Position numbers and translations under genes: made by a program. The notes under the pieces were generated by a model, which saw nothing but the letters and a program-made list of their open reading frames with translations, was not told the DNA's origin and did no database searches. A DNA stretch of 64,000 nucleotides from Bacteroidaceae bacterium (lineage in GTDB: Bacteria > Bacteroidota > Bacteroidia > Bacteroidales > Bacteroidaceae). Location: assembly GCA_017445925.1 (NCBI GenBank), contig JAFSRW010000004.1, positions 29,387 to 93,386 of the forward strand, in the 5' to 3' direction. How positions within the stretch are numbered: position 1 is the stretch's first letter; each line of letters starts with the position of its first letter. This document shows positions 846 through 37,700 of this stretch, one piece after another.

Positions 846-1280
846 TTATCCGGCGTAGCTATGCATGCCGCCCAACAGGAAGTTCACACCAAAGTAAGTC
901 ATCAGCAGGCAGGCAAAAGCCAAAAGTGAATAGATGCGATAGTTGCGTATGCTATTGAACCAAGGCAGACTCTTATTGTGCAAGGGAATGCTATAGACAA
1001 GCAATGTAATAAGTGCCCAACTTTCCTTGGGATCCCAACTCCAATACGTTCCCCAAGAGACATTTGCCCAAACAGCTCCTAAGAAGATACCTGTTGCCAG
1101 CAGGAATACGGCGGGCCTAAGCGCTTCTCTGCGAACGATGCTCACTACCAGCAGAATGTAACTCAGCATGATGGTTCCCACATGCACAAATAGGTAAGGT
1201 GAACGTAATATGGGCACTAGAGGACTTCGGCAGATGGCGATTACCATGTAAGATGCCATAATAGTGCCGGCAAAGGCCAA
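846..1280 (-). CDS. ccsA: CcsA/ResC heme-handling domain, out of frame with ResB
   Basis: System II cytochrome c biogenesis integral-membrane domain that presents heme for ligation to CxxCH apocytochromes. The tryptophan-rich WWD-type motif is visible as WGTYWSWDPKESW, followed by the conserved end FTYFGVN-like (MTYFGVNFLLGGMHSYAG), with about four membrane segments. Only about 145 residues are present, the core of the usual CcsA. The frame opens with TTG at 1280; the first ATG is at 1256, inside the first membrane segment, so an independent start is doubtful. The 5' end overlaps the end of ResB (1241-1280) in another frame, and adding one 7-bp unit (or 1 nt) in the upstream array fuses the two into one continuous ResB-CcsA protein of about 410 residues. 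Confidence 0.75.
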   Translation of the reverse strand: MAFAGTIMASYMVIAICRSPLVPILRSPYLFVHVGTIMLSYILLVVSIVRREALRPAVFLLATGIFLGAVWANVSWGTYWSWDPKESWALITLLVYSIPLHNKSLPWFNSIRNYRIYSLLAFACLLMTYFGVNFLLGGMHSYAG

Positions 1281-2026
1281 CAGAATAGTTGAAAGTTGAA
1301 GTTGAAAGTTGAAAGTTGAGAATTCTTGGATAATTTTTCTTTTTTCTCTTTTAATTTTTCATTCCTTTTGAAGGAAACCCAAATCATGCTAATAGCTAAG
1401 AGAATGTAACCCATGTATGTGATGCCAGTTCCCCATGGGTCATAGCTGATAGTGAAGACGCTGCCAGCAAGGTCGTCATCAAAGGAAGTCTGGTAGATAC
1501 GGAAACCTTTTACTCGACCTATGTTGTTCATAGAGATGCTGGTTTCCTCTTTTCCTTCCTTTGTGGCAATCACCACCTGGCTCACATAGTCGCTGGGCGT
1601 TATGCCATCGGCATCATACAGAACCTGAAAATCCTTCAGTGCCAAATAGAAAGGCATTTGCTCGGTTAGCGTATATAAGCCTTGATTATCCTTAGCCCAA
1701 TAAGAACGACTGGTCTCACCCTCGCGCAGGTGTACCATTCCCCTATGGCTGGTGATATGGGTGGTTAGCGCTCCAATAAGAATTATCAGGAAACTCAGGT
1801 GCAGCAGGAAAACAGATGGTTGCCTCCACATCTTCTTCTTATAAATAAGCCAGCATCCGGCTAAGGCCAGTATAGCCCAAAGTCCAATAAACCACCATGC
1901 GCCATAAACGTGTTGCATGGCGTAATGGGTGTCATAACGGTTTTCCAATACAGTTGCAACCGCTATGGCAATAACCAGAAAGAATACCAGTATAAAGGGC
2001 AATTTAGAAGGGACGGAAGTTTTCAT
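1241..2026 (-). CDS. resB: ResB/Ccs1-like cytochrome c biogenesis protein (tail frameshifted)
   Basis: Membrane partner of CcsA in system II cytochrome c maturation; it helps deliver reduced apocytochrome and heme on the outer face of the inner membrane. Visible are hydrophobic segments near residues 8-25, 42-60 and 70-90, a soluble domain of about 110 residues, and a last segment (GITYMGYILLAISMIWVSF). The final 25 or so residues read through a 7-bp array and then a non-native frame ending WHLTW, while the CcsA sequence continues in the next frame. The ATG at 2026 overlaps the end of the upstream Rid gene by 23 nt, suggesting translational coupling. Context: two CxxCH proteins lie upstream in the same direction. 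Confidence 0.75.
   Translation of the reverse strand: MKTSVPSKLPFILVFFLVIAIAVATVLENRYDTHYAMQHVYGAWWFIGLWAILALAGCWLIYKKKMWRQPSVFLLHLSFLIILIGALTTHITSHRGMVHLREGETSRSYWAKDNQGLYTLTEQMPFYLALKDFQVLYDADGITPSDYVSQVVIATKEGKEETSISMNNIGRVKGFRIYQTSFDDDLAGSVFTISYDPWGTGITYMGYILLAISMIWVSFKRNEKLKEKKEKLSKNSQLSTFNFNFQLFCWPLPALLWHLTW
1287..1319 (-). repeat. 7-bp tandem array (TTTCAAC type) at the ResB/CcsA junction
   Basis: On the coding strand the units are 7, 7, 6, 7 and 7 nt long; the third unit lacks one T. The array lies exactly where the ResB and CcsA frames part. Plus 1 nt or plus one 7-nt unit (both +1 modulo 3), or loss of two units, joins the frames. Confidence 0.85.
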
Positions 2027-3941: not shown

Positions 3942-5192
3942 TTAGAAGCTGAACTGAAGTTGAACAGAAGCATGATGGGTAGAGATGCCTAAGTCGTCAT
4001 TATCTCGGTCGAGCTGTGTCTTATGGCCATACCTTCCTGTATACTGATACATAGCTGAGAGTTTAAGATGTACTTTGGGAATGTAATAGTTGCAGACTAC
4101 AGCAGGCATATTCAGGAAACCGTCCTTTGTCGTTCCATTTCTGTCCATGAAGTCATATCGTACACCCAGTTGTACGGTAGGATGAACAAAATATCCTACC
4201 TGAGCGTATGCACCCCAGTAGTTGAATGTGTCGTCAATCTTTTGGCGCTTGGTAAAGCCTACATGCATCCAGTAGGCCTCTGCTCCAACATACCAGCGGT
4301 TCAGCAACATAGAAAATTCGGCTCCAAGACGTGTATCGTTGGTACTCTCGCTCTCACTCTCCACATTCAGTCCACCGCTGATACCAAACAGCATGTGCCT
4401 TCCTTTCAACATCTTGGCATTACCCTGTGTAGCAGGCATCTGCCCCCAGGGCATAAAAGTGAGCCTACCCGCATAGAGTAGGGCAGGAATGTGCCAGTCG
4501 TCCGAGAATGTTTTGGTTGCTGTGTTTACCGAAGAACCGCTTCCGTTCCACAGACCCACTTCGTAGCCTATCAGCCAACTTTCCTGTTTCTTGTTCAGTT
4601 TGGCTACGCCATGAAACTCAACGCCTAAGTCAAATCCTGTTCCGATGATGGGATTGACAGCGTTCAGGGTGTGAGGCATGATAATGGAAGTAGTAAGCGA
4701 TGTCGGTAGAATGGGGAATAATGTCTCTCCCAATGTGGTCAGATAGGCGTGTGTAAAAGGAGTCTTAAACTTTCCTACACGAAAACGGGCAGCAGGATTA
4801 ATTCTTAAGTCCACCCAACCCTGTTGCAGGATGTCGGCTCCCTTAGCCGCGGCATTTACAGAAAGGTTGTAGTCCAGTCTGCCAAATGTTTTACCTGTAA
4901 AACCCAGGATGGCATACGGGATGGCAAAGCCTGAGTTGGCTACATTATCCTGATTGTAGGCCTTGTCTAATCCTTCGTCATCGTAGTAGTTGAACTGCCC
5001 GCGTGTCTGCAGGAACAGGTAGGGCTTAAAGACAAATTTCTCGTTTTTCGACTGAAGGGTAAAGCCTCGGTCGTCGGCAATTCCCAACACGCCATTCTCC
5101 ATGTCGATGCTTGGCGAATCTTGCGCCAAAATACATTGAACATTGAACATTGAACATTGAACAATTATCAAAAATAAAGCTATTCGTTTCAT
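3942..5192 (-). CDS. Outer-membrane porin (OprP/porin O-P type) with array in the signal peptide
   Basis: 416 residues; beta-barrel protein with alternating aromatic strands and C-terminal Phe (VQLQFSF), resembling phosphate-selective porin O/P proteins: FxxKPYLFLQTRGQF near the start, and a DLRINPAARFRVGKFKTPF segment typical of the family. The signal peptide starts MKRIALFLIIV, then seven to ten residues (QCSMFNVQC) are encoded by a 7-bp array, then ILA/QDS as cleavage site. The frame is intact here, so the gene is on in this sequence. It lies between DHOR (55 nt upstream) and the CxxCH lipoprotein (1 nt gap), suggesting that it admits the substrate or ion used by that system. Confidence 0.75.
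   Translation of the reverse strand: MKRIALFLIIVQCSMFNVQCILAQDSPSIDMENGVLGIADDRGFTLQSKNEKFVFKPYLFLQTRGQFNYYDDEGLDKAYNQDNVANSGFAIPYAILGFTGKTFGRLDYNLSVNAAAKGADILQQGWVDLRINPAARFRVGKFKTPFTHAYLTTLGETLFPILPTSLTTSIIMPHTLNAVNPIIGTGFDLGVEFHGVAKLNKKQESWLIGYEVGLWNGSGSSVNTATKTFSDDWHIPALLYAGRLTFMPWGQMPATQGNAKMLKGRHMLFGISGGLNVESESESTNDTRLGAEFSMLLNRWYVGAEAYWMHVGFTKRQKIDDTFNYWGAYAQVGYFVHPTVQLGVRYDFMDRNGTTKDGFLNMPAVVCNYYIPKVHLKLSAMYQYTGRYGHKTQLDRDNDDLGISTHHASVQLQFSF
5133..5163 (-). repeat. 7-bp array (TTCAATG type) inside a porin signal peptide
   Basis: About 4.4 copies. On the coding strand it encodes part of the repeating peptide MFNVQCS. Gain or loss of one or two units would put the mature porin out of frame. 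Confidence 0.9.
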
Positions 5193-5221: not shown

Positions 5222-5251
5222 CGTTATCGTTATCGTTAACGTTATCGTTAA
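5222..5251. repeat. 6-bp tandem array between DHOR and porin
   Basis: Five copies of CGTTAT/CGTTAA. It reaches the DHOR stop codon (5248-5250) and fills much of the 55-nt gap. Confidence 0.8.
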
Positions 5252-6771
5252 AGAGATTCCAAGAATTTAATGAGTGCCTCTCGGTCCTCCTTATGCATCT
5301 TCTTAAATAGGTTCTTCGAGGCTTCTCCCTCACCACCGTGCCACAGGATGGCCTCTTGCAGGTTTCGGGCTCTTCCATCATGAAGGAAATAGGTGTGAGC
5401 GTTTACCTTCTCTTGCAGACCGATGCCCCACAAGGGTGTGGTGCGCCATTCGTTTCCTCTGGCCAGACCGCTCACATAGTTGTCGTTCAGTCCTACTCCC
5501 ATAATCTCAGAACCCATGTCGTGCAACAGGAAGTCGCTGTAGGGGTGAATCGTCTGATTGCCCAACCAGGGAAGCTCAGTTCCGTTCAGTAGCGTAGCAC
5601 CTCGCGGCTTTGTATGCAAGGTAGTGACGTGACATAAGTGACATTTGGCTTCGAAGAACATCTGCTCTCCTTTTTCTATCAGCTGGCGCTCGGAGATACG
5701 GTTACTCTTGTAACTAACCTGTGTCGTGGCACTTCCCAGACGACGGGCAGGAACGCCCAATCCGTGCAGGTAGTAATCGACATCTTCCATATCTTCGGTC
5801 GAGATGTCCAACTTGTCGTACAGCAGCCCCATCATAGAGCCTTGTTGCATCTGCATTTGTCCCTCGCAAATTTCCTCAGGATAACGGCTGTTTGTTACAC
5901 CCATATCGCTGGAAAAGCCCAATTCAACGGTTAAATCGGCATGTTGAGCCTTATTGCCCGATAGTCCCAAACGTAACTGACCTCGCTCTGTGATATAGTT
6001 GCATCGTCCGGATATCCCGTATTCCGGATAATTGGATCTTTGGGCCAAAGCTTCTATCTCGTTGGGGTCAAGTGCCATCATCTGCCCCATTCCTACGTGG
6101 CGGAGCGGAATTCTGACGGTGCAGAAGAGATCTTCGGGACGAATGGGCTCGTCTGTATCTCTGTAGGTAGGCTTATACCAGTCAGTAATCGTATATTCGG
6201 GATACACCAGTTCGTACGGTTCTCCGTCAGGGAATTGGAACTGCTGACTGTGCCAACGGCATTCCAGTTTTCCTTCAGCTGTTACGCCCATAATATTCTG
6301 ATCGTGTATAACACGACCATAGTCCTGGAAGAATGCTCCGTTCTTACGAGTCACATATACCAGCATCGACGAAAATCCGTAGGCTCCACTGCCATAGACA
6401 GGCGTCCCGTCTGGGTCTTGACCGTTCTGAGTCCACAGGCCCGGTTTGGTCCTGCCGGCATTACGGTGACACGAACCGCACGAATAGCCTGCATAAACGG
6501 GACCTAATCCAGTACCTGAGTTCAGCGGATTGTCATAGAGACGATCGCCATGCGTGAACCTTTTCTCGTTGGCAGGAATGTTTGCAACCCAGTCGGCATC
6601 CGTATCGTAGGCATAGCTGGAGTTCTTAAAAACCGTAGAGGTGCCTGCAGAAAGCACAAAACCCTCTGGCACCTCTATGTCCCGGATGTCATTCACCTCT
6701 AAACCATCATTCTCACAACCCCAAAAGGCTGTGAGAACGACGGCTAATAATAGCCTGATTATATTTTTCAC
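5248..6771 (-). CDS. Di-heme oxidoreductase (DHOR, DUF1111) lipoprotein
   Basis: 507 residues. A lipobox ends at Cys19 (AFWGC), so it is a periplasmic or surface lipoprotein. Two c-type heme motifs are visible: CGSCH at 98-102 and CHLCH at 377-381. The sequence between them and the tail (TPLWGIGL, FLHDGRARNLQEAILWHGGE) follow the DHOR/DUF1111 family, distantly related to MauG and cytochrome c peroxidases. Family members often sit beside imelysin proteins in iron-uptake loci, as here, where the imelysin gene is 60 nt upstream. Likely role: redox chemistry on iron or a heme/iron ligand coupled to transport; this part is inference. Confidence 0.85.
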   Translation of the reverse strand: MKNIIRLLLAVVLTAFWGCENDGLEVNDIRDIEVPEGFVLSAGTSTVFKNSSYAYDTDADWVANIPANEKRFTHGDRLYDNPLNSGTGLGPVYAGYSCGSCHRNAGRTKPGLWTQNGQDPDGTPVYGSGAYGFSSMLVYVTRKNGAFFQDYGRVIHDQNIMGVTAEGKLECRWHSQQFQFPDGEPYELVYPEYTITDWYKPTYRDTDEPIRPEDLFCTVRIPLRHVGMGQMMALDPNEIEALAQRSNYPEYGISGRCNYITERGQLRLGLSGNKAQHADLTVELGFSSDMGVTNSRYPEEICEGQMQMQQGSMMGLLYDKLDISTEDMEDVDYYLHGLGVPARRLGSATTQVSYKSNRISERQLIEKGEQMFFEAKCHLCHVTTLHTKPRGATLLNGTELPWLGNQTIHPYSDFLLHDMGSEIMGVGLNDNYVSGLARGNEWRTTPLWGIGLQEKVNAHTYFLHDGRARNLQEAILWHGGEGEASKNLFKKMHKEDREALIKFLESL

Positions 6772-6831: not shown

Positions 6832-8007
6832 CTAGTAAGTACGTGCTTTTCCGTCCTTGAACAGCAGGAACTCCAATGTGTGGAATCCGCGTACGTTCTG
6901 AACAGCCTCTATATCCTCATTGTCCTCATCATAATCGCCTTCCCACTTAATTAGTTCTTCTATATTGCCGCTTTCCATTACGCCCTTGATAGCATCAACG
7001 TCCAAAGGCCAAGAGTCCATGTTGGGGTCGAGACCCAGGTCGGCAACAGGACCAAAAAGGAATGCCTCGCTGGTTTCCCAAGGTTCACGGGCCTCAATCC
7101 ACAGGTCGGCAGCCTTCTTGAAGTTGGCGCTTGAAGGCTGGTTGCTCAGCACAACGATAGCCTGACGCAAGGCCGCGGTCTTGGTAACCAAATCTGCGTA
7201 GGTGGGAAGTACTACCTGATCAACGTATGTGCTTACAATTTCCTCCATTTCATCGTCATCTGCATGCTGACTGATAAAACTTGTCAGGTCTTTTTCCAAT
7301 ACATTCACCAAAGCGGCACAAGCTTCCTGAGCAACCAAGACGCTGGGACTGCCAATGTGACTGCGGAAAGGAGCAGCCATACCCTTGATAGAGTTGTAGG
7401 CAGCTTCGATCTTACCCTTTACAGAAGCGTACAGTGTGGCATTTAGTGATTTGGTGAAGGCTGCCAGTGAGTGAACGGCTTCCTGATTGTTGCGAGTTCC
7501 GTTGAAAGCATTTCGAATGCTGACGATATTGTTGGAATAGTCATCGATAGAGTGCCAACTGTACCAAGACTCAACAGCATAAACTGCCTCTGTGTATTTG
7601 CCTGCTTCCCATAGGTCGCGAGGCTCACCAATCTTGGCTGTGCCGACCTCACCTGCGATGTCTATACACCCGTCAACTATCTGTTGTACGCAGGCGGCAG
7701 CACTCTGGTACTCACCTCCAAAGGTTTTGAAAGTCTGTGCATAGGGCTCACCTCCGTTGTAGCTTACGCTCCAGGCTTTGTTCAGGTCGCTGGCATCCTT
7801 TGCCAACAGATTTGCTACTGCTGTAGCATACTGTGTCCAAGTGTTGATGTTCTCTGGGGTTACATCGATGTTATTCTCATTGATGGTCACATCAGCTGTT
7901 CCTTCCGGAATGCCGGGTTTCTCCTCCTCGTTGTTGTTGTCGTTACTACAGGCTGCGAAGCCCAATCCCATAGCCAACAGGCTAATCATAAAAACGTTCT
8001 TTTTCAT
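6832..8007 (-). CDS. Imelysin-like lipoprotein, circularly permuted
   Basis: 391 residues from the ATG at 8007 (MKKNVFMISLLAMGLG); an upstream start at 8034 or within the array is possible but would precede the signal peptide. Lipobox at Cys20 (FAAC). All-helical imelysin (M75) superfamily protein, probably binding iron rather than cleaving peptides. The usual first-half signatures (EPWETSEAFLFGP, DSWPLD and the GxHxxE motif GFHTLE at 374-379) lie at the C-terminus, and the usual second half comes first. That matches the circularly permuted form known from a Bacteroides ovatus structure. Neighbours DHOR and two porins support a periplasmic iron/heme uptake role. Confidence 0.85.
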   Translation of the reverse strand: MKKNVFMISLLAMGLGFAACSNDNNNEEEKPGIPEGTADVTINENNIDVTPENINTWTQYATAVANLLAKDASDLNKAWSVSYNGGEPYAQTFKTFGGEYQSAAACVQQIVDGCIDIAGEVGTAKIGEPRDLWEAGKYTEAVYAVESWYSWHSIDDYSNNIVSIRNAFNGTRNNQEAVHSLAAFTKSLNATLYASVKGKIEAAYNSIKGMAAPFRSHIGSPSVLVAQEACAALVNVLEKDLTSFISQHADDDEMEEIVSTYVDQVVLPTYADLVTKTAALRQAIVVLSNQPSSANFKKAADLWIEAREPWETSEAFLFGPVADLGLDPNMDSWPLDVDAIKGVMESGNIEELIKWEGDYDEDNEDIEAVQNVRGFHTLEFLLFKDGKARTY

Positions 8008-8031
8008 ATTATTATTGGTTTTATCTTTTTT

Positions 8032-8063
8032 CATTGAACATTGAACATTGAGCATTGAGCATT
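8032..8063. repeat. 7-bp array (TTCAATG/TGCTCAATG type) upstream of imelysin
   Basis: About 4.5 units between the porin stop and the imelysin start. The first 32 bases with the T-run before them are the same as at 18647-18683, showing a copied element. On the coding strand the last unit supplies an in-frame ATG at 8034. Confidence 0.85.
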
Positions 8064-8072
8064 ATCTTATTT

Positions 8073-8099
8073 TTCACTCTTCATTCTTCATTCTTCATT
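8073..8099. repeat. 7-bp array (TTCATTC type)
   Basis: Nearly four units, directly after the stop codon of the porin ending at 8103 (minus strand). Different unit but the same period as the neighbouring array. Confidence 0.8.
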
Positions 8100-8102
8100 T
8101 TT

Positions 8103-9457
8103 TTAACGGAGCTTCCACTTATTATCTTGCAAGAACCAGCCAATGAAGGCTACGCCCAAGGCGAACTCGTTCTCCGATTTATATTGGCCGTTTCCAATTC
8201 TACGGTTGGTGTAGTCTGCCTTAATCACTAGATTAGGTATTGGACGATAGTTCAGACCGGCTACCCACATCTGGGTTTTCAGCCTGTCGTCGGCAGCTTT
8301 CAGGTTGTTGGCATCCACAATCACCTTCTCTTGTGGGTTGTAATATTCGTAGCGGAAGAACGGAACGAAATCAAGGTATTTCGGATTCTTCATGAAGGCC
8401 TTCAGGTTCAGACCAGCCTCCACACCATAGCTTACGCCACGTTGTGCTATTGGAGCCAGACGGCTGTAAGGCGATTTGCTGCTCAGCTTATTGTTCTTTG
8501 CGGTTAACAGAGAGCTGTTGCCGACGTTTCCACCCAACAGGTTTCCACGAACGGTAAAATATCGATGTCTGTACTGGGCATCTACCGACCAGATGGTTAC
8601 AGGAACCTTAAAAGTATAGGTTTGAGGCTTATCGCTATTGGCAGCTGCATTGTTAATGTAATAGACCGAGGCACCTAACCGAAGACCAGGAACACCCCTA
8701 TAGTTGATGCGAGCAATGTAAGCAGGCGAGGTGAAGTTGTCTGTTTCAAAGAAACCTTGTTTGCCGCCAGCTATCCATTTGTTACGATCGAAACCATTGG
8801 CATTAAGGCCTGCAACTATCATAGCCTGATAATCGAAGGAAGCCCATTTTTTGCCGAATTCACCGAGAAAACTGATACCCGTTTCGTGCCAAGTGCTGGG
8901 CAAAAGGGTTGTTTCGCCTTCAGGTCGAACGGTACCAAAGAAGTTGATGGGCTCGTGATGCGTGTTGGTCAGACCAACGGGAATAATCTGATGTCCTGCG
9001 CGAACCATAAAATGATTATTCAGTCGGTATGTTATATGGAATTGCTCCAAGGCCACTTCACCGCCCTTCTCAACCTCAGTCTCGTATTCGCCGTTTTCGG
9101 TATTCTCAATCTCGTAGGCAGTGCCTGTGCCTCCAGCCTCAAATTCAACTTCTACGCCCAAGTTCCAATGTTTATTGAATTTATAGTCGCCTGCTAATAC
9201 AAAACGGGGGATAGAAATGGTGTTACGCTTAAAGTCGCTGTTACCCTGAGACGTTCCGTTAAACCGATTGATACCATAGTTCTTGAACTGAGCCAGAATC
9301 TCACCATAGCCGCCAACACGATAACGCCCATAGCTATCCATTTCAGTAGAATCATTGTTCCATTGGGCGTGGGCGTCAGTTCCAATTGAAAATTGAAAAT
9401 TGAAAATTGGAAAGTACCAATAATCAACGCCAATGTTAGTAGTAATCTCTTCATCAT
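8103..9457 (-). CDS. Porin-like outer-membrane beta-barrel, out of frame at a 7-bp array
   Basis: Two frames are needed. From the ATG pair at 9457/9454 one frame gives a signal peptide start (MMKRLLLTLALIIGT), then enters a 7-bp array. The mature protein, about 425 residues ending at 8103, is in another frame whose only upstream start is a TTG. With one extra 7-bp unit, or two fewer, the frames join and the signal peptide ends in TDAHA/QWNN, a good AxA cleavage site. The barrel part (VRAGHQIIPVGLTN, FDYQAMIVAGLNANGF, KADYTNRRIG) resembles porin O/P-type proteins. As sequenced the gene should make no exported protein. First gene of the imelysin/DHOR operon. Confidence 0.75.
9382..9410 (-). repeat. 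7-bp array (AATTTTC) in the porin signal-peptide region
   Basis: Three full units plus four bases. Between the last in-frame Gly codon of the signal part and the first of the mature part there are 35 nt (2 modulo 3); 42 nt or 21 nt would be in frame. Ends are CCAATT and AATTGG. Confidence 0.9.
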
Positions 9458-9482
9458 TCAATCATGTTTTGGTTTCCGGCTG

Positions 9483-9513: not shown

Positions 9514-9632
9514 TACACAAATTCTATGAAATTGCAGCCTAACCAGAACCCCCTCTTTACCCGATTTTGATGAAAGATAAATTACTGTAAAGGGACAAAC
9601 AGATATCAAATCCCAATAGTAAGAAGCCTGAA

Positions 9633-9762
9633 TTGACCTTCGGTCGAGCCAGCTCACGCTCGGAAGAACTCAAACAAGTTCGGTTCTCCTCTCGCTCAAT
9701 CGCTGCCTTCGAGGAGAATTAAGGCTTCAAACTCCTTGAAGCCTGCGATTGAGTGAGAGGAG
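9633..9762. repeat. REP-like dispersed element with nested hairpin, copy 1
   Basis: The 445-nt gap 9458-9902 holds no gene. Bases 9633-9710 are about 80% identical by eye to 14325-14399. Copy 1 continues into a large hairpin: arms 9686-9703 and 9745-9762 pair at 17 of 18 positions, with an inner perfect 9-bp stem (9722-9730 with 9736-9744). Looks like an intergenic extragenic-palindrome family. Confidence 0.7.
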
Positions 9763-9877
9763 ACTCTTTGCTGCTTATTTGTGATAATTATGACATTGCG
9801 CTGAAAAATTGACAGTTTTTTTTATATCTGAGACGTAACATTTTTCGATTTCGTATACTATACTGATAGAAAAGTAT

Positions 9878-9885
9878 TAATTTTG
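9878..9885 (+). promoter_or_regulatory. -7 box before RhuM/Fic gene
   Basis: TAATTTTG, 17 nt upstream of the ATG at 9903. No convincing -33 element. Confidence 0.45.
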
Positions 9886-9902
9886 CAAAAGAATTCGAAA
9901 GT

Positions 9903-10877
9903 ATGAAACAGGATCAGATTGTAATCTATCAGACAGAGGACGGACAGACACAGATTGATGTCCGTCTGGAGAACGAGACGGTATGGTTAAATGTTGCACA
10001 GATGGCTTCGCTCTTTATGAAGGAGGAATCAAACGTGAGACGACACGTTTTGAATGCCTTCAGAGAGGGCGAGTTGGAGCGTGACGATAATAACGTGCAT
10101 TTTTTACACGTTAATGGCGTGAAGAAACCTGTGCCGTTTTATAGCCTTGATGTTATCATCTCTGTTGGCTATCGCGTTCATAGCAAACGTGGTACCGCCT
10201 TCCGCATCTGGGCTCGAAAGATTATCAAGGACTACCTTGTGAAAGGATATGCTGTAAACCAACGTATACATAGTGAGCAGATTAGCGAACTGCGCCAATT
10301 GGTTCAGATGTTAGGACGTACCATACAGAATCAGCATTTGGAACAGAACGACGAGAATCAGGCTTTGTTTGATATTGTTGTAGACTATACCTATGCGCTC
10401 GACACACTCGATGACTACGACTATCAGCGACTAAGTGTCGGTAAAACCACCCAAGAAGATAGGTTCCGTGCTACCTATGAGAACGCGATGGAGGCTATAC
10501 AGGCTCTTCGTGATAAGTTTGGTGGCTCGACGCTGTTTGGTAATGAGAAAGATGAGTCGTTTAAGAGCAGCATTGGCCAAATATACCAGACATTTGGAGG
10601 TGACGAGCTCTATCCGAGTGTGGAGGAGAAGGCTGCTATGCTGCTGTATCTGGTTACGAAGAACCACTCATTTAGCGATGGTAACAAACGCATTGCTGCC
10701 ACGTTGTTCCTTTGGTTCCTGAATAATAACGGTATTCTATATCGTGAGGATGGTTCGAAGCGACTGGCTGACAACACCCTTGTGGCTCTGACGCTGATGA
10801 TTGCCGAGAGCAAGACGGAGGAGAAGGACGTGATGGTGAAGGTGGTGGTAAACCTGATTAACCAGAGGAACGAGTAA
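9903..10877 (+). CDS. RhuM-family protein with C-terminal Fic/Doc domain
   Basis: 324 residues. The N-terminal 115 residues are the RhuM virulence-protein domain (RLENETVWLNVAQMASLF, FYSLDVIISVGYRVHSKRG, FRIWA). After a helical linker comes a Fic/Doc domain with HSFSDGNKR at 255-263, the HxFx(D/A)GNKR signature. Fic proteins transfer AMP or phosphate to target proteins; Lys-Arg at the end is closer to Doc kinases than to classical HPFxxGNGR AMPylators. Cytoplasmic. No antitoxin-sized gene or inhibitory helix partner adjoins it. Function in cells unknown. Its stop is 20 nt from the convergent GH36 gene. A second RhuM-like start is at 63947. Confidence 0.85.
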   Translation: MKQDQIVIYQTEDGQTQIDVRLENETVWLNVAQMASLFMKEESNVRRHVLNAFREGELERDDNNVHFLHVNGVKKPVPFYSLDVIISVGYRVHSKRGTAFRIWARKIIKDYLVKGYAVNQRIHSEQISELRQLVQMLGRTIQNQHLEQNDENQALFDIVVDYTYALDTLDDYDYQRLSVGKTTQEDRFRATYENAMEAIQALRDKFGGSTLFGNEKDESFKSSIGQIYQTFGGDELYPSVEEKAAMLLYLVTKNHSFSDGNKRIAATLFLWFLNNNGILYREDGSKRLADNTLVALTLMIAESKTEEKDVMVKVVVNLINQRNE

Positions 10878-10896
10878 TAAAAGCCTCCGTTCCCTC

Positions 10897-12945
10897 TCAC
10901 TTCTTCTCGTACTTCAGCAGAAGGCTGGTGCGAGGTTGGGGTAGGGTAAGCGTTAGGCCGTTGGATAATTGTTGGCCTGTGTATTCCTTGGTCTCGCCAT
11001 TATCCTTATTAAATACACGGTATATGGCTGTGGGGTTTAGGCTGGAGAGGCAGACATCATAGGTGGGAGATTCGCAAGCAGCACGACGGAAAGCTATAAT
11101 ATAGCCCGTTTCATCGGAAGGACGATGAAGTTGATAGGCCAACCAGATGTCATCACCTGTAAGGTCGCCCGTACCTGAAAGGGGATAGAAATCTTCGTAA
11201 AAATAGGGTCGTACCTCCTGGAATTCCTGCATGGTACGGGCCATATCGGTGAACGACTCGCCTTGCTGAGTCAGTTTCCAGTTGAATACCACTGCGCTGC
11301 CAAGGGATGAACGGGAATCGAAGGGATTCACGTGATAACTGCCTGTTGCGTGCTGGGGAAGATAGAATTCCAGGCCATAGGTGTGGCATTGATAGCCCAC
11401 AGGCTCACCGTAGTTGTAATCTGTACGCCACATGGGAGCACTACGCAGCATAGTCTCATAGTCCAGACGCCTTCCACCGCTGGCACAGTTGTCGATAAGG
11501 AGGTGTGGGAAACGGGAAAGCAGATAGTCCCAATAGTCGTAAAGTCCCATAATGTACTTTACTTCCGTGATACCCTTGCGTCCTTCTGTATCATTGGCCA
11601 ACCAAATGCTTTCAGGAGCGATATTAAAGTCCTGCCGGTAGTGGTCGATGCCGTTCTCTTCCAGCAGATCACCTATTGTCTTACTCATCCATTGACAAGC
11701 CTCAGGGTTACCCAGGTTAAAGAGCCTGTTGTCACCACCAGCGGCCAGCATCCATTCGGGATGTTCGCGTTCCCAAAGGCTACCCTTATAAACACGTTCA
11801 GGCTCGAACCAGACCATAAATGATGTATGAGGTGTCTTATGGATGTAGTCAGAGATGGGCTTGAATCCATTAGGGAAGCGTTCTGTATCGGGCATCCAAT
11901 TGCCAACGGTGTTGTACCAGTTCTTGCCTGTAGCGTAATCAGCTGCCTCGGTATACCAACCGGCATCCAGCCAGAAGGCTTCAGGATTCAAACCAAACAT
12001 CCTTGTACGCTGAACCAGAGCAATGGCATACTCGGTAGTCATGCAAGTATACTCGTTGCAGGGAGCTGGGTCACCCCAGTTAAAGCCTCCGAACATGGGG
12101 TACCAGGCGGGTTGGTTATCAATCTTCCTTGAGTGGTGTGCCAACATAAACCGACGAAAACGATTGTGCCCCATCATACGGTCTGTTCCCTGCCAGAAGA
12201 GCAGGCAGACGCTGGCTGTGCGGATGCGTTCGTTTGGCAACAAGCCTGCATTGAAGTGCTTCAAGCCTGCTTTCAGTTGGACTCGTTGGTTATCTGTGCG
12301 GGTAATCTGGCTTTGCCAAGTGCCCGTCCAACCAATAGCCACCATAACACCTTCGTTTGGCGCTGTTTGAAGGTTGAAGAAAGGGAAAGCCCCATCAGAA
12401 GAGCGCCCGCCTCGGGGCTCCATATTTAATGTGTCATCCATTTGAAGGAGCCGTTCGCGTGGGGCAAAGTCAGCACGACTGGCATTACTGCCTTCTGCAT
12501 AATAGACTTTGGGAACTCCGGCTTGGTGGCGGAAGGTAATATCTGCTGTCTGCACCTGACTGATGGCTGGTGTGATATGGGTGCCGGTATTCTCAAAACG
12601 CAATACCCATTCTATGGTGCCGAAGTCCGTCCAACCTGTTACTTCGCACTCCACCCTAAGGCCCGTTTTGCTATCGGTGTAATGGGCAAGATAGCGTATT
12701 TGGCTCTCTTCTGTACTGGGCATACGTGTAAGGCTGTGATTGCATCGCTTCAGCACTTCTGCAGAGGACTGACCACCATATACAAAAGAGAAAGGTGGTG
12801 TTTTCCCCTTACCGAACTGTGATTTTATCCAGCGTTCCACTTGCACTGGCTTACCGTTTTGTACAAAGGTTCCCTGAGCCTTGGCGATTAGCGCACAGAA
12901 AAGGAGTGCAATAGCACATAGTACAGATTTCAAGATGCTTCTCAT
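10897..12945 (-). CDS. GH36 alpha-galactosidase, exported
   Basis: 682 residues with a signal peptide (cleavage near AKA/QGT, residue 23). Family GH36 melibiase: an N-terminal beta-sandwich (to about 270), a TIM barrel with WLDAGW at 325-330, the nucleophile Asp439 in YRQDFN, and the acid/base Asp495 in CASGGRRLD (487-495), then a C-terminal beta domain. It releases alpha-galactose from raffinose-type oligosaccharides, galactomannan side chains or host glycans, most likely in the periplasm. Single gene with its own promoter at 12960-12988; no SusC/D pair nearby. Confidence 0.93.
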   Translation of the reverse strand: MRSILKSVLCAIALLFCALIAKAQGTFVQNGKPVQVERWIKSQFGKGKTPPFSFVYGGQSSAEVLKRCNHSLTRMPSTEESQIRYLAHYTDSKTGLRVECEVTGWTDFGTIEWVLRFENTGTHITPAISQVQTADITFRHQAGVPKVYYAEGSNASRADFAPRERLLQMDDTLNMEPRGGRSSDGAFPFFNLQTAPNEGVMVAIGWTGTWQSQITRTDNQRVQLKAGLKHFNAGLLPNERIRTASVCLLFWQGTDRMMGHNRFRRFMLAHHSRKIDNQPAWYPMFGGFNWGDPAPCNEYTCMTTEYAIALVQRTRMFGLNPEAFWLDAGWYTEAADYATGKNWYNTVGNWMPDTERFPNGFKPISDYIHKTPHTSFMVWFEPERVYKGSLWEREHPEWMLAAGGDNRLFNLGNPEACQWMSKTIGDLLEENGIDHYRQDFNIAPESIWLANDTEGRKGITEVKYIMGLYDYWDYLLSRFPHLLIDNCASGGRRLDYETMLRSAPMWRTDYNYGEPVGYQCHTYGLEFYLPQHATGSYHVNPFDSRSSLGSAVVFNWKLTQQGESFTDMARTMQEFQEVRPYFYEDFYPLSGTGDLTGDDIWLAYQLHRPSDETGYIIAFRRAACESPTYDVCLSSLNPTAIYRVFNKDNGETKEYTGQQLSNGLTLTLPQPRTSLLLKYEKK

Positions 12946-12959
12946 AACAATTCTTTTTG

Positions 12960-12988
12960 CAAAGTTACGAATAAGTGAGAAAAAACAA
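12960..12988 (-). promoter_or_regulatory. Promoter of the GH36 gene
   Basis: Minus-strand TAACTTTG at 12960-12967 and TTG at 12986-12988, 18 nt apart; 14 nt before the ATG at 12945. It lies back to back with the promoter for the gene at 13032. Confidence 0.65.
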
Positions 12989-12997
12989 AGTTTTTTT

Positions 12998-13027
12998 TTG
13001 CATTTCTCTTACTAAATCGTAACTTCG
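12998..13027 (+). promoter_or_regulatory. Promoter of the lipoprotein gene at 13032, near-leaderless
   Basis: TTG at 12998-13000, 19-nt spacer, TAACTTCG at 13020-13027 (one mismatch to TAnnTTTG), four bases before the ATG. Confidence 0.5.
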
Positions 13028-17735: not shown

Positions 17736-18654
17736 AAACGAGAGGGTGAAATCCTCGAGTGATATAGTTTTCTTTGCTTTGGCAGGCATTGCCGGCAAAC
17801 TGGCAGGCGATATTGATAAGATTTTTCCATTGCTCCTCGGATAGGTTGGGGAGCATTTCTTTTGTAATTCCATGCCAAATGAGAGCGCATGAAAAACCTG
17901 CATTAAAGCTGTCGCCGGCACCAACAGTACTCACTACATTATCTATTTGGGGTGCCTGAAAATGATAATTTGCTGTTGGAGTACAGACTTCTATCATTCC
18001 GGCTCCTGCTGTGCAGATAAAGATAGGGCAATATGCCTTTATGTGTTGCTGGTATACTTCTTGTGCCTCGCGAGTTCCATACATAATCTCAAAATCATCG
18101 GCACTACCCCTGACTATGCTGCTCTGACTGAAATTGCTCAGTATGTTTGGCATCAGCGTTTCCAACTCATGGGCATGGCTACGGCGGAAGTTCAGATCGT
18201 AATAAACAAAGGCTCCCACCTTGTTGGCTTCTGCTAACAGATGAGTAATCATGGGGCGGGTACCTTTGCAGACAGCATAGTAGGAACTGAGCAGTAGCAC
18301 ATTGTTGGCTTCGAGGCTTGGCGCTTTCCAACCTTCTGGCGTAAAAGGCGGCTGTTTGTAGAATACGTAATTGGCATCGCCCTTATCGTTCAGAAAAGCC
18401 AGGCTTACGGCGCTCTTTTCTTTCTCCAGCACCTTAAAATATTCGGTGGATACGCCATTTTTTTGCATAAAGTTGATGGTCTGCTGTCCCACGACATCAG
18501 CTCCTGTATAGCCTACAAAAGCACAGGGAACACCAGCCCTGCCTACGCTGATAATACTGTTAAAGCTGCTACCACCAGGCACAGCTGCCACCGGCTGATT
18601 GTTCTTAAAGAGAACATCCAAAATGGTTTCTCCAATTCCGAGGACTTTTTTCAT
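17734..18654 (-). CDS. PfkB-family carbohydrate kinase (fructokinase-like)
   Basis: 306 residues from the ATG at 18654, which is the last ATG of a 7-bp array; upstream in-frame codons are array-derived and not expected to be native. Ribokinase fold: GIGETILDVLF at the start, substrate-binding PGGSSFNSIISVGRAG at 26-41, and ATP/anion-hole motif STVGAGDSFNAGF with catalytic Asp248 (the usual leading Asp of DTxGAGD is Ser). Phosphorylates a sugar, probably fructose, at the cost of ATP in the cytoplasm. No transporter or sucrase adjoins to fix the substrate. Confidence 0.87.
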   Translation of the reverse strand: MKKVLGIGETILDVLFKNNQPVAAVPGGSSFNSIISVGRAGVPCAFVGYTGADVVGQQTINFMQKNGVSTEYFKVLEKEKSAVSLAFLNDKGDANYVFYKQPPFTPEGWKAPSLEANNVLLLSSYYAVCKGTRPMITHLLAEANKVGAFVYYDLNFRRSHAHELETLMPNILSNFSQSSIVRGSADDFEIMYGTREAQEVYQQHIKAYCPIFICTAGAGMIEVCTPTANYHFQAPQIDNVVSTVGAGDSFNAGFSCALIWHGITKEMLPNLSEEQWKNLINIACQFAGNACQSKENYITRGFHPLV

Positions 18655-18700
18655 TGAACATTGAACATTGAGCATTGAGCATTGAACATTGAGCATTGAA
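18652..18700 (-). repeat. 7-bp array (TTCAATG/TGCTCAA type) forming the PfkB start
   Basis: Seven units. On the coding strand the last unit's ATG is the kinase start codon. Its first 32 bases equal the array at 8032. Confidence 0.9.
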
Positions 18701-20638: not shown

Positions 20639-20670
20639 CATTGAACATTGAACATTGAACATTGAACATT
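20639..20670. repeat. 7-bp array between helicase and patatin promoters
   Basis: About 4.5 units of TTGAACA on the plus strand, in the short region shared by the two divergent genes, next to both -7 boxes. Confidence 0.9.
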
Positions 20671-21934: not shown

Positions 21935-22035
21935 TGTTTAGTTTTATGAAATTACCCGATGTGACGAACAAAATGTTCAATGAACAATATTCTACACCCA
22001 ATGGGTCGCGATTGAATAGCAAGAACGAAGTAATA

Positions 22036-22064
22036 ATGTTCAATGTTCAATGTTCAATGTTCAA
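22036..22064 (+). repeat. 7-bp array (TGTTCAA) carrying the S46 peptidase start codons
   Basis: Four units on the plus strand with ATGs at 22036, 22043, 22050 and 22057, spread over the three frames. Only 22036 and 22057 are in frame with the peptidase. Confidence 0.9.
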
Positions 22065-24219
22065 TGATAAGAAAAAAATACTTGGCATTTTTTTCTTTCT
22101 GCTTTTCGCCTTTTCGATAAAGGCGAAAGCAGATGAGGGCATGTGGATGCTTAACAACATAGATGCTAAGACGGCGCAAGTGATGAAGGAGTTGGGTTTG
22201 CAGCTCACACCACAGGAACTCTATAACCCCGACGGGGTGAGCCTGAAGGATGCGGTAGTTGACTTCGGCGATTTCTGCTCTGGTGTTGTGGTAAGTCCCA
22301 ACGGACTGGTATTCACCAATCACCATTGTGGTTATAGTTCTATCCAGAAGCTGTCGACCCCGGAGGATGACATCCTCAAGAACGGTTTTGTGGCGCGTTC
22401 TTTTAAGCAGGAAAGGCCTGTAGAAGGTCTTTTTGTCCGCTTCCTGCAACGTACAGAGGACTGTAGCCCTCGTGTTTTGGCTGCATTGGATAGCATTTAT
22501 CGTGCTAATCCAGATGTGGAACAGCGAGTGCTGCGCAAAGACCATATTGACAGCATCTGTCATGCAGTAGAAAAGGAGTACGAAGTGGCGAATCCCAGTT
22601 TGAACTGCCAACTGAAAGCCTTCTATGGCGGCAATGCTTTCTACGTAAGTATATATAAGGTATATAGGGACATCCGTCTGGTCTTTACAGCAACCGAAAC
22701 TATGGGTAAGTTCGGAGGCGATACGGACAACTGGATGTGGCCCCGTCAGACTTGCGACTTCAGTGTGTTCCGTATCTATGCCGATGATAACGGAGAACCG
22801 GCAGAGTACAGTCCCAAGAACAAACCCTTGCATCCCAAGCGTTATGCCAAGGTCAGCATTGATGGCTATCAGCCTGGTGATTATTGCATGACAGTGGGTT
22901 ATCCTGGCAGTACCAGCAGGTACCTCAGCTCTTGGGGTATTGATGAGCGTGTGAATGCCAAAAATGTCAGCACCATTCAGGTACGAGGCAAGAAACAGGA
23001 GGTCTGGAAGAAGTTTATGGATGCCGACCGTGCCGTAGCCATAAAGTATTCCAGCAAATGGGCAAGTAGCAGCAACTACTGGAAGAACTCCATTGGTATG
23101 AATAAGGCTATTGCTGATTTGAATGTGATAGCCCAGAAACAGCAGCTGGAACAGCAGGTGAAGGACTGGTATAACGGCAGGGATGACCTGAAAGCCCGTT
23201 TTGGCAATATGTTTGAGAGTCTGGAGAAGGCATACGCTGAGCGCAGGGAAAACGTCTATGCACAGGGTTTCTTTAGCGAGACATTCAACAGGGGTATAGA
23301 GATTCTACGTGTAGCCGACCAGTTGAACCGCATGCCGCAGGATGCTGATTCTACTCAGGTGGCTGCCACACGTGAGAGCCTGCAACGTTTCTTCAAGGAT
23401 TATGATGCAGCCCTTGATGAGGCTACTGCTGCCGTTCTCTTGCAGAACTACCGCGAACAGGTAACAGATAAAAAGTTCTGGCCTGAGTTTTACAACTTGA
23501 TAGATTCTCTATATAACGGCGACTGTGCCGCTGTTGCACACGACGTTTTCAATTATACTATTTGCAAGGATATCTCTTGTCTGGATAGGTTGTTGGCTGA
23601 CAGCACGTTACGCGAGAGAGACCCCTTGCTGCGTTATGCCGATGAAATTAAGGACTTTAGCCAGTTCCTTTATGGCAGTCAGCGCGAGAATAACAACATT
23701 ATTAAATATAACGAGCTTTTACTGACCCAGGCATTGCTGGAGATGGATCAGGAAACACCGCATTACAGCGATGCAAACTTTACCATGCGTCTCTCTTACG
23801 GCTTTATCCAGGATTATACGGCTCAGGGTCAGCACTTCCAGTATTATACCGATGCACAGAGCTTGTTGGATAAAGCAGCCAAACAGAACGAGATAGAAGA
23901 CTATGAGTTGGAATCTGACATTATTAAACTGATGCAGAAGGGCAAGTGGGGCAAGTATGCCGATAAGAATACCGGTGATATGCACCTCTGCTTTATTTCC
24001 AACAACGATATTACAGGCGGAAACTCTGGCAGCCCGATGTTTAATGGCAAGGGCGAACTGATTGGCTTGGCTTTCGATGGCAACTGGGAGGCTATGTCGG
24101 GCGACATCAGTTTCAACAGTTCCCTGCAGCGTTGCATAGGCGTGGATATCCGCTTCGTTCTATTTATGATTGATAAGTGGGGTAAGGGAAAGAACCTGAT
24201 AAAGGAGATTAGGCCTTAG
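22057..24219 (+). CDS. S46-family dipeptidyl-peptidase, DPP7-like
   Basis: 720 residues from ATG 22057: MFNDKKKILGIFFFLL is a signal peptide ending near AKA/DEG. The frame is open up to an ATG at 21934 that overlaps the previous stop, but that would bury the signal peptide. Chymotrypsin-like S46 serine peptidase removing dipeptides from exported peptides: His in FTNHHCGY (89-90) and Ser657 in GGNSGSPMFN. Eighteen residues after Ser is Gly (FDGNWE), the residue found in P. gingivalis DPP7 (hydrophobic P1), where DPP11 has Arg. So amino-acid fermentation from peptides is likely. Periplasmic. The native start region seems replaced by the array. Confidence 0.9.
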   Translation: MFNDKKKILGIFFFLLFAFSIKAKADEGMWMLNNIDAKTAQVMKELGLQLTPQELYNPDGVSLKDAVVDFGDFCSGVVVSPNGLVFTNHHCGYSSIQKLSTPEDDILKNGFVARSFKQERPVEGLFVRFLQRTEDCSPRVLAALDSIYRANPDVEQRVLRKDHIDSICHAVEKEYEVANPSLNCQLKAFYGGNAFYVSIYKVYRDIRLVFTATETMGKFGGDTDNWMWPRQTCDFSVFRIYADDNGEPAEYSPKNKPLHPKRYAKVSIDGYQPGDYCMTVGYPGSTSRYLSSWGIDERVNAKNVSTIQVRGKKQEVWKKFMDADRAVAIKYSSKWASSSNYWKNSIGMNKAIADLNVIAQKQQLEQQVKDWYNGRDDLKARFGNMFESLEKAYAERRENVYAQGFFSETFNRGIEILRVADQLNRMPQDADSTQVAATRESLQRFFKDYDAALDEATAAVLLQNYREQVTDKKFWPEFYNLIDSLYNGDCAAVAHDVFNYTICKDISCLDRLLADSTLRERDPLLRYADEIKDFSQFLYGSQRENNNIIKYNELLLTQALLEMDQETPHYSDANFTMRLSYGFIQDYTAQGQHFQYYTDAQSLLDKAAKQNEIEDYELESDIIKLMQKGKWGKYADKNTGDMHLCFISNNDITGGNSGSPMFNGKGELIGLAFDGNWEAMSGDISFNSSLQRCIGVDIRFVLFMIDKWGKGKNLIKEIRP

Positions 24220-34704: not shown

Positions 34705-37700
34705 ATGAAACTCCGTTTCCTACTCATAGCAAGCCTGATTCCCACTCTTAGCGCAGTGGCTCAGATAGAGGAATATACTTTACCTGATGGTAAGGTGATA
34801 AAGATAGACCGCAGTGTCTTTCCTGACTTGAAATACGATGTAACCCCAAGGCCCCAGCCTGCCGATTATGTGGCTCGTCGTAAGGCAAGGAGGGGTAAGT
34901 CCCAACTGCCTCCGTTTGTCTATAACGGACAGGATAAGTATTTCCCTCCCATCTTCAATCAGGATGGCGGCTCCTGTGGCTCTGCTGCGGGAGTAGGTTA
35001 TCAGTTTACGCACGAGATAAACAGTTATCGCGATGCGGATGCTTCCCTACCTGAGAACCAGTATCCCTCGCATTTCACCTGGCTGATGGCTTACCAGACC
35101 AGTTCAACAGAGGGAATGGCTAAGGGAAACGGAATCCCCAATGTGCCAACATACGGGGGAAGAACCTACAGCAGACTTTTTGGCCCGCAGACACATGATG
35201 ACCCCGACTATGGTTGGATGCAGGGTTACGACAAGTGGTATAGCGCCATGTGGAACAGGTCGGCGTATGACTTTTCCATGGCCCCCACCAACACGCCAGA
35301 GGGCAGACAGGAACTCAAGGAATGGCTCTATAACCATAGTGGCGATGACACCATGCACGGAGGTGGTGTGGCAGGCATTGGCGTAGCTGCATACGGAACT
35401 TGGGCAGCTATCCCTAACTCAGCCGCCAATAAGGCTGCTGGGGTTGTGGGTATGAAGTACGTTAAGGCATGGGGCGAAACCTTTAACCATGCACTTACCG
35501 TCTGCGGTTATGACGATCGTATAGAGTTCGACTTGGATGGCGACGGCAAGATAGGCGAGGTGGACGAGGATGAGGTAGGAGCCTGGATTATCGCCAACTC
35601 GTGGGGTGACGGATGGGAGAACAAGGGCTTCATCTATTGTCCCTATAAATACTCCTATGCGGTAGGAACAGATAGCTGGACCTGGACTCCAGGAGCCTTT
35701 GTTATCCGAGAGGATTATCGTCCGCTGCGTACCATTAAGTTGCTGATGGATTACACGCGTCGTAGTGAGTTGTTGCTCACTGCTGGTGTGGCTGAGAACT
35801 TGAATGCCACCAAGCCGGAAAAGACCATTCCTTTTGAACATTTCCGCTATGCTGGCAATACCTTAGGAGCCAGCCCTGCTCCAGAGGTTCCTATGCTGGG
35901 TCGTTGGACAGATGGTATACACGATGAACCTATGGAGTTTGGCTACGATCTTACAGACCTGACCTTCTCCGTGGACCGTACCAAGCCTCTCAAATATTTC
36001 TTCATTGTCAAGCCCAAGACGGACGCTATAGGAACCGGACATATTTATAATGCTTCCATTATCAATTATGAAGTAGAGAATGATGGCGTGGAAATACCCT
36101 TCGACCAACAGAATGTTGAAATCAAGAATAAGGGCAGGGAAACAGTCATCAGTGTCATTGTGCCAGGTGAACAGCTTTATCCTCCCACTAATCTTAGTGT
36201 GGAAGACGGGGTGCTGGTTTGGGAGGCCCCACAGGCTTCCAGTCTTACCCTTACAGGTTATCATGTTTATGAGGGAGAAATACTCGTGGCTCAGCTGCCA
36301 GCTGAGAAGACCTTCTATACCCCCGCTGATGGGGCAACAGGCCCCTTTACCGTAAGAGCAGTATATCAGGCTGGTCAGTACGGACAGGAGTCAGCATCAT
36401 CTAATACCGTTCTTTTACAGACTCCACAGTTGGGTGCCAATCAGATTGTCGAACTAACTGAGAGTGGAATCACCATCCCCAATGCCATCTCAGAGATGCT
36501 GGGAAAGGCTACCATTGAGTTCTGGATGCGCAACGATAAGAATGTCAACTATTCCCATCAGGTAGGTCCGGGTTGGGGCAAGTTCCTCTTCCACAACAAC
36601 AGCAACGGAAGCCTTTCCGTAGGGTGGGAGAGTAACAGCACCGACCGTCTGAATGTCTCCAACATTTTCACCACTACTAAGAAGTGGAACCACATAGCCA
36701 TTGTCATAAACGGTAGTACGCTTTCGGTATTTGTCAATGGTACCAAGAAAGGCACCATCACTTCTAAGACTTATTCGGGACTGACCGCCTTTGGCGATCT
36801 TCGGTTTGGTCATACTGATACCAATAACTGGTGGTTGGGTGGTCTGGATGAGATTAGGGTCTGGAAGACAGCCCGTACGCAGACCGAGATCAGGAATAAT
36901 ATGCGTGTTCGTATAGCGGCTCCAGCTTTACAGCCCGATTTGTTGGTTTATCTGCCTATGGAGACTATCGAGGTGGACGGAAAGACCCTGCTACGCGAAT
37001 GCGTAAGCGGAAAGCATGCCACCTTCCATGTAGGTACCCATGAGGTCGTGGAGTCCGAAGCTCCCTTCACAGGTTCAGCACCTACTCCCACCCTCACCAT
37101 TGTAGAGGAAGAAACCACCCACTTGGCAGGCATCCCCTTCCAGCTTACAGCTCAAACCACCCTTAATGCCATCAAATGGGAATGGAAAGTCGAGACCCCC
37201 TCTAACTCCCCCTCTATGGGGAGAACAATAGGTCAACTGTCAACTGTCAACTGTCAACTGGTAACACTGAATTTCCCGGAACCCGGAAAATACAATGTTA
37301 CCTGCACTGCTACCTATGCAGATGGAAGCGAACTGACAGAAAGCAAAGAAGTGACAGTGCTTCAGGGAGAAAGCCCTGTGGCAGCCTTTGAGATCCTCAA
37401 TGATACACTTCCCGCTGGCGACAGGTTCAGCTTTATCAACAAGTCGGAGGGTACGGGTTGTACCTATCAGTGGAGCATGCCTGGAGCTGAGGTAGAGCAG
37501 TTGGGAGGTACCAATGCTACAGCCCTGTATCCCACCGTAGGAACCTTCCAGGTAACTCTTACGGCTACCAACCCATACGGCTCTAACAGTGTGACCAAGC
37601 AGGTAATGGTGCGTGAGTCGGCTCCTGCAGCACGCTTTGACATCTCTCAGACAGCCATCATGCTGGGCGAGGGAGTCCAGCTTACCGATGAGAGTCGTTA

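What the first reader, a model, noticed from the sequence alone, without database searches (positions are those of the whole stretch)
8103..9457. Porin switched off by a 7-bp array in its signal peptide
The good signal peptide (from 9457) and the mature beta-barrel are in different frames, meeting at AATTTTC repeats (9382-9410). The mature frame alone has only a TTG start. The distance is 35 nt between matching Gly codons; plus one unit (42) or minus two (21) puts them in frame and gives an AHA/Q cleavage site. This is what a slipped-strand phase-variable surface protein, caught in its off state, should look like.
Basis: partly seen in the sequence, partly recalled or inferred. Interest (0 to 1): 0.88.

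Follow-up and report, generated by a model that had tools for sequence, protein, structure and literature searches.

The report
Porin frame broken at heptamer repeats
In an uncultured bacterium related to rumen species, the start of an outer-membrane porin gene is out of step with the rest because a 7-base repeat in its export signal has one copy fewer than in a nearly identical stretch of a sister genome, where the gene is intact; such repeats are common in this genome, so the break looks real but regular on/off switching is not shown.

Summary
At 8103-9457 (-) a signal-peptide frame and a Porin_O_P frame meet out of register at (CAATTTT)n, 9384-9413; the Gly-Gly distance is 35 nt. Of 70 distinct porin loci examined, the window included, 68 have start, signal peptide and mature part in one frame, one is cut by a contig end, and only the window is broken. 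The sister genome G051 has one more 7-bp unit and is in frame; 133 nt upstream and 12 nt downstream of the array are otherwise identical, although the mature genes differ by 11%. The window-lineage mature frame shows 53 silent against 7 replacement changes, so loss of frame looks recent.

Heptamer arrays are a genome-wide feature (55 in 460 kb sampled, mostly intergenic). In signal peptides they are nearly always in frame, and close relatives carry different units at the same site. Three coding sites of this gene cluster differ in unit between species yet stay in frame in the near relatives seen; in this genome a second gene (ResB-CcsA fusion, 849-2026) is also broken at an array. An off allele made by unit loss is likely; phase variation in a population is untested.

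The parts
9194..9457 (-). Signal-peptide frame (MMKRLLLTLALIIGTFQFSIFNFQ...), runs out of frame into the mature region and stops after 87 aa
9384..9413 (-). Heptamer array in the signal-peptide core, 3 full CAATTTT units plus 5 nt (strict array 9384-9409)
8103..9461 (-). Frame of the mature Porin_O_P protein; only a TTG start and no signal peptide in this frame; predicted mature part 8103-9365
   Evidence: (PF07396, 28.7 bits against a cut-off of 20.9)
6832..8055 (-). Imelysin-like (Peptidase_M75) gene, same cluster; heptamer arrays 8032-8063 (over its listed start) and 8073-8099
5248..6771 (-). Di-haem oxidoreductase (DHOR) gene, same cluster
3942..5192 (-). Second Porin_O_P gene, in frame, with a CAATGTT array (5133-5165) in its own signal peptide
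849..2026 (-). ResB-CcsA fusion gene in two frames (1367-2026 and 849-1298), broken at a degenerate CAACTTT array (1287-1319) in the inter-domain linker; one open frame in nine other genomes

Best explanation
A short heptamer array forms the hydrophobic core of the signal peptide of a Porin_O_P protein. Because 7 is not a multiple of 3, each gain or loss of a unit shifts the mature frame against the start codon. In the lineage of this genome the array lost one unit, most likely by slipped-strand mispairing, so ribosomes that start at 9457 leave the porin frame and stop at 9194: the porin is not exported, apart from any leak by ribosomal frameshifting. Shown: the frame break, the array at the junction, the one-unit difference from an in-frame sister allele in an otherwise identical tract, and conservation of the mature frame. 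Inferred: slippage as the mutation, loss rather than gain of a unit, absence of protein, and reversibility. Wider frame: genomes of this clade can carry hundreds of short heptamer arrays, mainly between genes but also where proteins tolerate them (signal-peptide cores, linkers). Their units differ between close relatives at the same site while the frame is mostly kept; this genome holds the out-of-frame cases that I found.
For: 68 of 70 distinct porin loci in frame, 1 cut by a contig end, only the window broken. G051/L092: 37-nt against 30-nt run, in frame; 133 + 12 nt around the array identical while the mature parts are 88.9% identical. Window branch 53 silent, 7 replacement changes, two of the latter in the last codon. 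Other array-bearing orthologues (L091, L093, L095, L096, L097, L011; degenerate in L104) in frame, most with another unit. In one search, 38 G051 and 47 other relatives' ORFs with a good homologue in the G000 sequence held gave five splits: four at the porin and ResB-CcsA arrays and one in the last residues of a protein, so a generally error-ridden assembly is unlikely. A 30-nt array is shorter than a short read (inference).
Against: One consensus assembly; no reads, no second genome of the species, no proteome. The array is short (3-4 units), where slippage should be slow (recalled). A one-unit difference could also arise by unequal recombination: L092 is itself a mosaic whose breakpoint lies at or just after the array. 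A leaky product cannot be excluded. The split scan missed L178, so its sensitivity is limited.
Confidence: 0.62

Rival explanations
1. True phase variation: the population holds both states and the array is maintained as an on/off switch for a surface porin, as in Neisseria Opa.
For: Array position, non-triplet unit, one-unit difference between close alleles in an identical tract, conserved mature frame. Opa repeats also lie in the leader-peptide region (PMC3960869, passages seen).
Against: Out-of-frame states are rare across relatives; arrays are short and unspecific; no population data.
Confidence: 0.3
2. Gene-cluster decay in this lineage: the porin and the ResB-CcsA cytochrome maturation protein both lost frame at arrays because the pathway is no longer under selection.
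For: Two of the three array-bearing coding sites of the cluster are broken in this genome; none in the array-bearing relatives read. The ResB half shows 20 replacement to 30 silent changes on the window branch.
Against: Mature porin 7 to 53 and CcsA half 4 to 23 replacement to silent; imelysin, DHOR and second porin open; ResB and CcsA work as separate proteins in other bacteria (recalled).
Confidence: 0.25
3. Ribosomal frameshifting inside the array makes some porin even from this allele, so the array sets a dose rather than a switch.
For: The array holds TTTT/TTTTC runs on which tRNA-Phe could re-pair in a neighbouring frame (inference); the title of a 1989 paper in a reference list reports ribosomal frameshifting for gonococcal P.II genes in E. 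coli (title seen; paper not read).
Against: No slippery site with a stimulatory structure was looked for; the relatives read keep the frame by DNA sequence.
Confidence: 0.12
4. Assembly or consensus error in the array.
For: Draft genome (100 contigs, 84% complete; metagenome origin inferred from its relatives' titles); tandem repeats are where errors gather; the second break also lies at an array.
Against: Array shorter than one read (inference); few frame breaks elsewhere in the genes compared; the second porin's array reads in frame.
Confidence: 0.12

Closest known systems
Neisseria opa genes (CTCTT pentamer repeats in the leader-peptide region)
   Same: Tandem non-triplet units in the part encoding the leader peptide of an outer-membrane protein; unit number sets the frame (PMC3960869, passages).
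   Different: 7-bp units in Bacteroidales, few copies, unit sequence differs between relatives, nearly always in frame, no switching measured.
Helicobacter pylori oipA/hopZ-type CT repeats in signal-peptide regions (recalled)
   Same: Frame control in the signal peptide of an outer-membrane protein.
   Different: Dinucleotide tract, another phylum; recalled only, not looked up.
Haemophilus influenzae hmwA heptanucleotide repeats
   Same: 7-bp units linked to a phase-variable surface protein (PMC8262952, passages).
   Different: Repeats lie between promoters; the constructs named in the passages have 13-24 copies; they tune transcript level, not frame.
Dispersed heptamer arrays of Xanthomonas/Nostoc (GGGNATC) and of Beggiatoaceae, Cyanobacteria and five Bacteroidetes (TAACTGA)
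   Same: Many dispersed short heptamer arrays, few units each; over-represented outside genes or just upstream of start codons; length and sequence variation between close relatives; other heptamer repeats noted beside them in some Bacteroidetes (PMC4692102, PMC4679880, passages).
   Different: Those papers follow one unit family each; here 36 kinds of unit in 143 arrays, also in signal-peptide cores and linkers.

Membership tests
Porin_O_P (PF07396) | Pfam gathering score reached | tested here: met
   28.7 bits against a cut-off of 20.9 (residues 64-172 only)
Porin_O_P (PF07396) | Outer-membrane beta-barrel fold | not testable with these tools
   structure prediction switched off; no PDB relative by sequence
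Simple-sequence contingency (phase-variable) locus | Tandem repeat of non-triplet unit inside the reading frame | tested here: met
Simple-sequence contingency (phase-variable) locus | Unit-number difference between close alleles changes the frame | tested here: met
   (between two species-level genomes, not within a species)
Simple-sequence contingency (phase-variable) locus | Both states common among relatives | tested here: not met
   1 of 70 loci out of frame (most of them have no array); 1 of 19 signal-peptide arrays. Within one species: not tested
Simple-sequence contingency (phase-variable) locus | Reversible switching within a clonal population | not testable with these tools
   no reads or isolates
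Neisseria Opa system | CTCTT pentamers in the leader of an Opa protein | tested here: not met
   unit is CAATTTT and the protein matches Porin_O_P; analogy only

The most novel reading that the evidence does not exclude
These Bacteroidales carry a genome-wide set of interchangeable heptamer cassettes: short 7-bp arrays whose unit is replaced at fixed sites (intergenic, signal-peptide cores, inter-domain linkers) between close relatives, by an unknown copying or regrowth process. Because a stop-free heptamer array reads as the same cyclic heptapeptide in all three frames, it can serve as a hydrophobic signal core in any frame while acting as a frame switch for what follows. The porin and ResB-CcsA genes of this genome would be two such switches caught out of frame.
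Probability: 0.3. Interest if true: 0.78.

Novelty: new variant of a known kind. Interest (0 to 1): 0.6.

Why it matters
Slippage switches in signal peptides are known from a few mucosal pathogens. A commensal clade in which several genes have heptamer arrays in signal peptides and linkers, with units changing between sister species while the frame is mostly kept, would give a natural system for how tandem repeats arise, spread and are tolerated in proteins. It also warns that gene callers may miss or truncate surface proteins in such genomes.

Tried and rejected
Rejected readings: random coincidence (shuffles and reversed-pattern control); intact gene with an alternative start (the mature frame has only an acidic TTG-initiated N-terminus); long-standing pseudogene (53 silent to 7 replacement); generally frameshifted assembly.

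Candidates dropped from counts: L163, L157 and L235 (not signal-peptide-like by eye) and L100 (marked OFF?, not signal-peptide-like by eye); L211 is the same gene as in L143. The detector missed L178 (gene broken further on) and arrays under 20 nt (L104, L011). One search was given 96 loci (30, 52, 14 of the 17 new ones) and kept 71 distinct sequences; one search shows that L006 and L101 are one place, so I count 70. Other porin matches were listed but not fetched. In a few of the 70 (L029, L123, L136, L268) the first ATG printed is not the likely start; their frames are open.

The genus request returned 139 genomes and no relative closer than L091/L092.

Full report
Observation. On the minus strand a signal peptide begins at ATG 9457 and its frame stops at 9194; the Porin_O_P frame is open from TTG 9461 to 8103. 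They meet at (CAATTTT)3 plus 5 nt, 9384-9409 (period-7 run to 9413). In the window, period 7 stands out: 15 arrays of at least 24 nt against 0-1 for each other period from 2 to 15 at matched length, and none in 20 Markov shuffles.

Relatives. I read the N-terminal region of 96 fetched loci (30, 52, 14). They reduce to 71 sequences and, since L006 and L101 are one place, to 70 loci including the window. Of these 68 have an ATG with a signal-peptide-like start in the mature frame, one is cut by a contig end (L140), and only the window lacks it. The array is seen only in near relatives, and its unit differs: CAATTTT in the window and G051/L092, CAATTCT in L091, CAATTAT in L093, CAATTCA in L095, CAACTTT in L096 and L097, degenerate in L104 and L011; L094 keeps about one unit. 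More distant orthologues read have ordinary signal peptides.

The sister allele. G051/L092 has a 37-nt run where the window has 30, and is in frame. From 133 nt upstream to 12 nt downstream of the array the two are otherwise identical, although their mature genes are only 88.9% identical. L091 and L092 are 98.9% identical in the mature gene (14 of 1239 differences) yet 75-88% in the three 60-nt steps around the signal peptide, where L092 matches the window at 95-100%. So L092 looks like a recombinant with a junction at or just after the array, and the unit number has changed faster than point substitutions in the shared segment. This is the strongest support for an unstable array; it also leaves unequal recombination open beside slippage.

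Selection. Against L091, L092 and L093 the window branch has 53 silent and 7 replacement changes in the mature porin. The gene was probably functional until recently.

Signal-peptide arrays in general. The relaxed scan covered 919,892 bases of the own genome, 413 kb of G051 plus 30 pattern loci of it, and 112 relative loci (some of the same genome). It listed in-frame signal-peptide arrays 5 + 5 + 9 times and out-of-frame 1 + 0 + 1 times. One in-frame row is a duplicate (L211) and one out-of-frame row is not signal-peptide-like (L100), leaving 18 in frame and 1 out. If frames were free, about one third would be in frame; at least 18 of 19 would then have a chance near 3e-8 (hand calculation; rows are not independent, several being orthologues). 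Frame thus appears kept by selection, and the locus does not look like a member of a freely switching set.

Genome context. In 460 kb of the own genome (20 stretches plus the window) there are 55 arrays of at least 24 nt: 38 intergenic and 17 in called ORFs, with 84% of bases coding (ORFs called mechanically). This sample is not strictly random: it includes the window, and the stretches come from contigs already known to hold arrays, without the array-centred parts taken earlier. G051 has 28 in 400 kb of contigs chosen likewise. Arrays are short: in the 143, 4 or 5 full units in 73, 61 and 9. The CAATNTT motif array occurs in 94 of 139 genus genomes, with up to 289 overlapping hits (203 in the own genome), and in 44 of 149 genomes drawn across the order, the own included, mostly at low counts. 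The reversed control is near zero in most genomes but equals or exceeds the motif in some (for example G106 and G211), so other heptamer families are probably counted there. A heptamer array free of stops reads as the same cyclic heptapeptide in all frames (arithmetic; examples).

Unit differences at the same site. Of 183 own-genome arrays, 24 had both flanks matched in the G051 sequence held. Some keep the unit (9384, 20639, L156, L162), others carry another heptamer at the same place (5133, 37232, L174, L178:10045), and in some no clear array remains. In the gene cluster itself: the second porin's signal peptide has CAATGTT in the window and L212, CAATTCT in L211, TTCATTC in L210 and TTCATTC/TTCACTC in L213, all in frame; the ResB-CcsA linker has GTCAGAT, AATGTTC, CAATGTT with TCAATGG, and TTTCAAC arrays in L275-L278, all in one open frame.

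A second break. In the window the ResB-CcsA gene lies in two frames, 1367-2026 and 849-1298, joined at a CAACTTT array that includes a 6-bp unit. Of 14 genomes searched, 13 have a match: seven besides the window's cover essentially the whole query in one stretch; G017 and G026 show two matched pieces inside one open frame; G046 gives two pieces in open frames of different length (645 and 599 aa) and G038 and G058 only weak partial matches, so these three say little. A third case, L178 (67 codons in this genome, 647 in G051), breaks at a heptamer-like insert. In one search the splits other than at the porin and ResB-CcsA were three: one in the last residues of a protein, without an array, and two at N-termini, both next to arrays in G051. 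Two or three breaks in this genome may mean a slippage-prone lineage or relaxed need for the pathway; I cannot separate these.

Mechanism. Most likely one unit was lost in this lineage, by slippage or unequal exchange, taking the porin frame away from its signal peptide. The change is reversible in principle. Whether the population switches, and whether the array is kept for that, needs reads. The nearest known analogue in logic is the pentamer leader repeat of Neisseria opa (PMC3960869, passages). Dispersed heptamer arrays are known in other bacteria, some Bacteroidetes among them (PMC4692102 and PMC4679880, passages). Signal cores built from exchangeable heptamers were not found in my paper searches.

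Noticed in passing
window 849-2026 (-): ResB-CcsA fusion split into two frames at a heptamer array in the linker; one open frame in nine other genomes.
   Followed up: yes
L178 from 5960 (+): Gene with an in-frame CAATGTT signal-peptide array stops after 67 codons at a heptamer-like insert; the G051 orthologue has 647 codons.
   Followed up: partly
window 5133-5165, 37232-37260; L174, L178: Orthologous sites in G051 carry arrays of a different heptamer.
   Followed up: partly
window 8032-8063, 18652-18685, 20639-20670, 22035-22068: CAATGTT arrays lie at gene starts so that the ATG of a repeat unit may serve as start codon.
   Followed up: no
window 9576-13023: RhuM/Fic-domain gene and melibiase gene lie in about 3.4 kb with no match in L091, whose flanking matches are about 95 nt apart there.
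   Followed up: no
L214 about 1285-1304 (-): A lipoprotein-like signal peptide built from TGCATTA heptamers (MRNTLCIMHCALCIVSLCLAAC) in another relative.
   Followed up: no
genus, 139 genomes: Overlapping hits of the CAATNTT array motif range from 0 to 289 per genome within one genus.
   Followed up: partly
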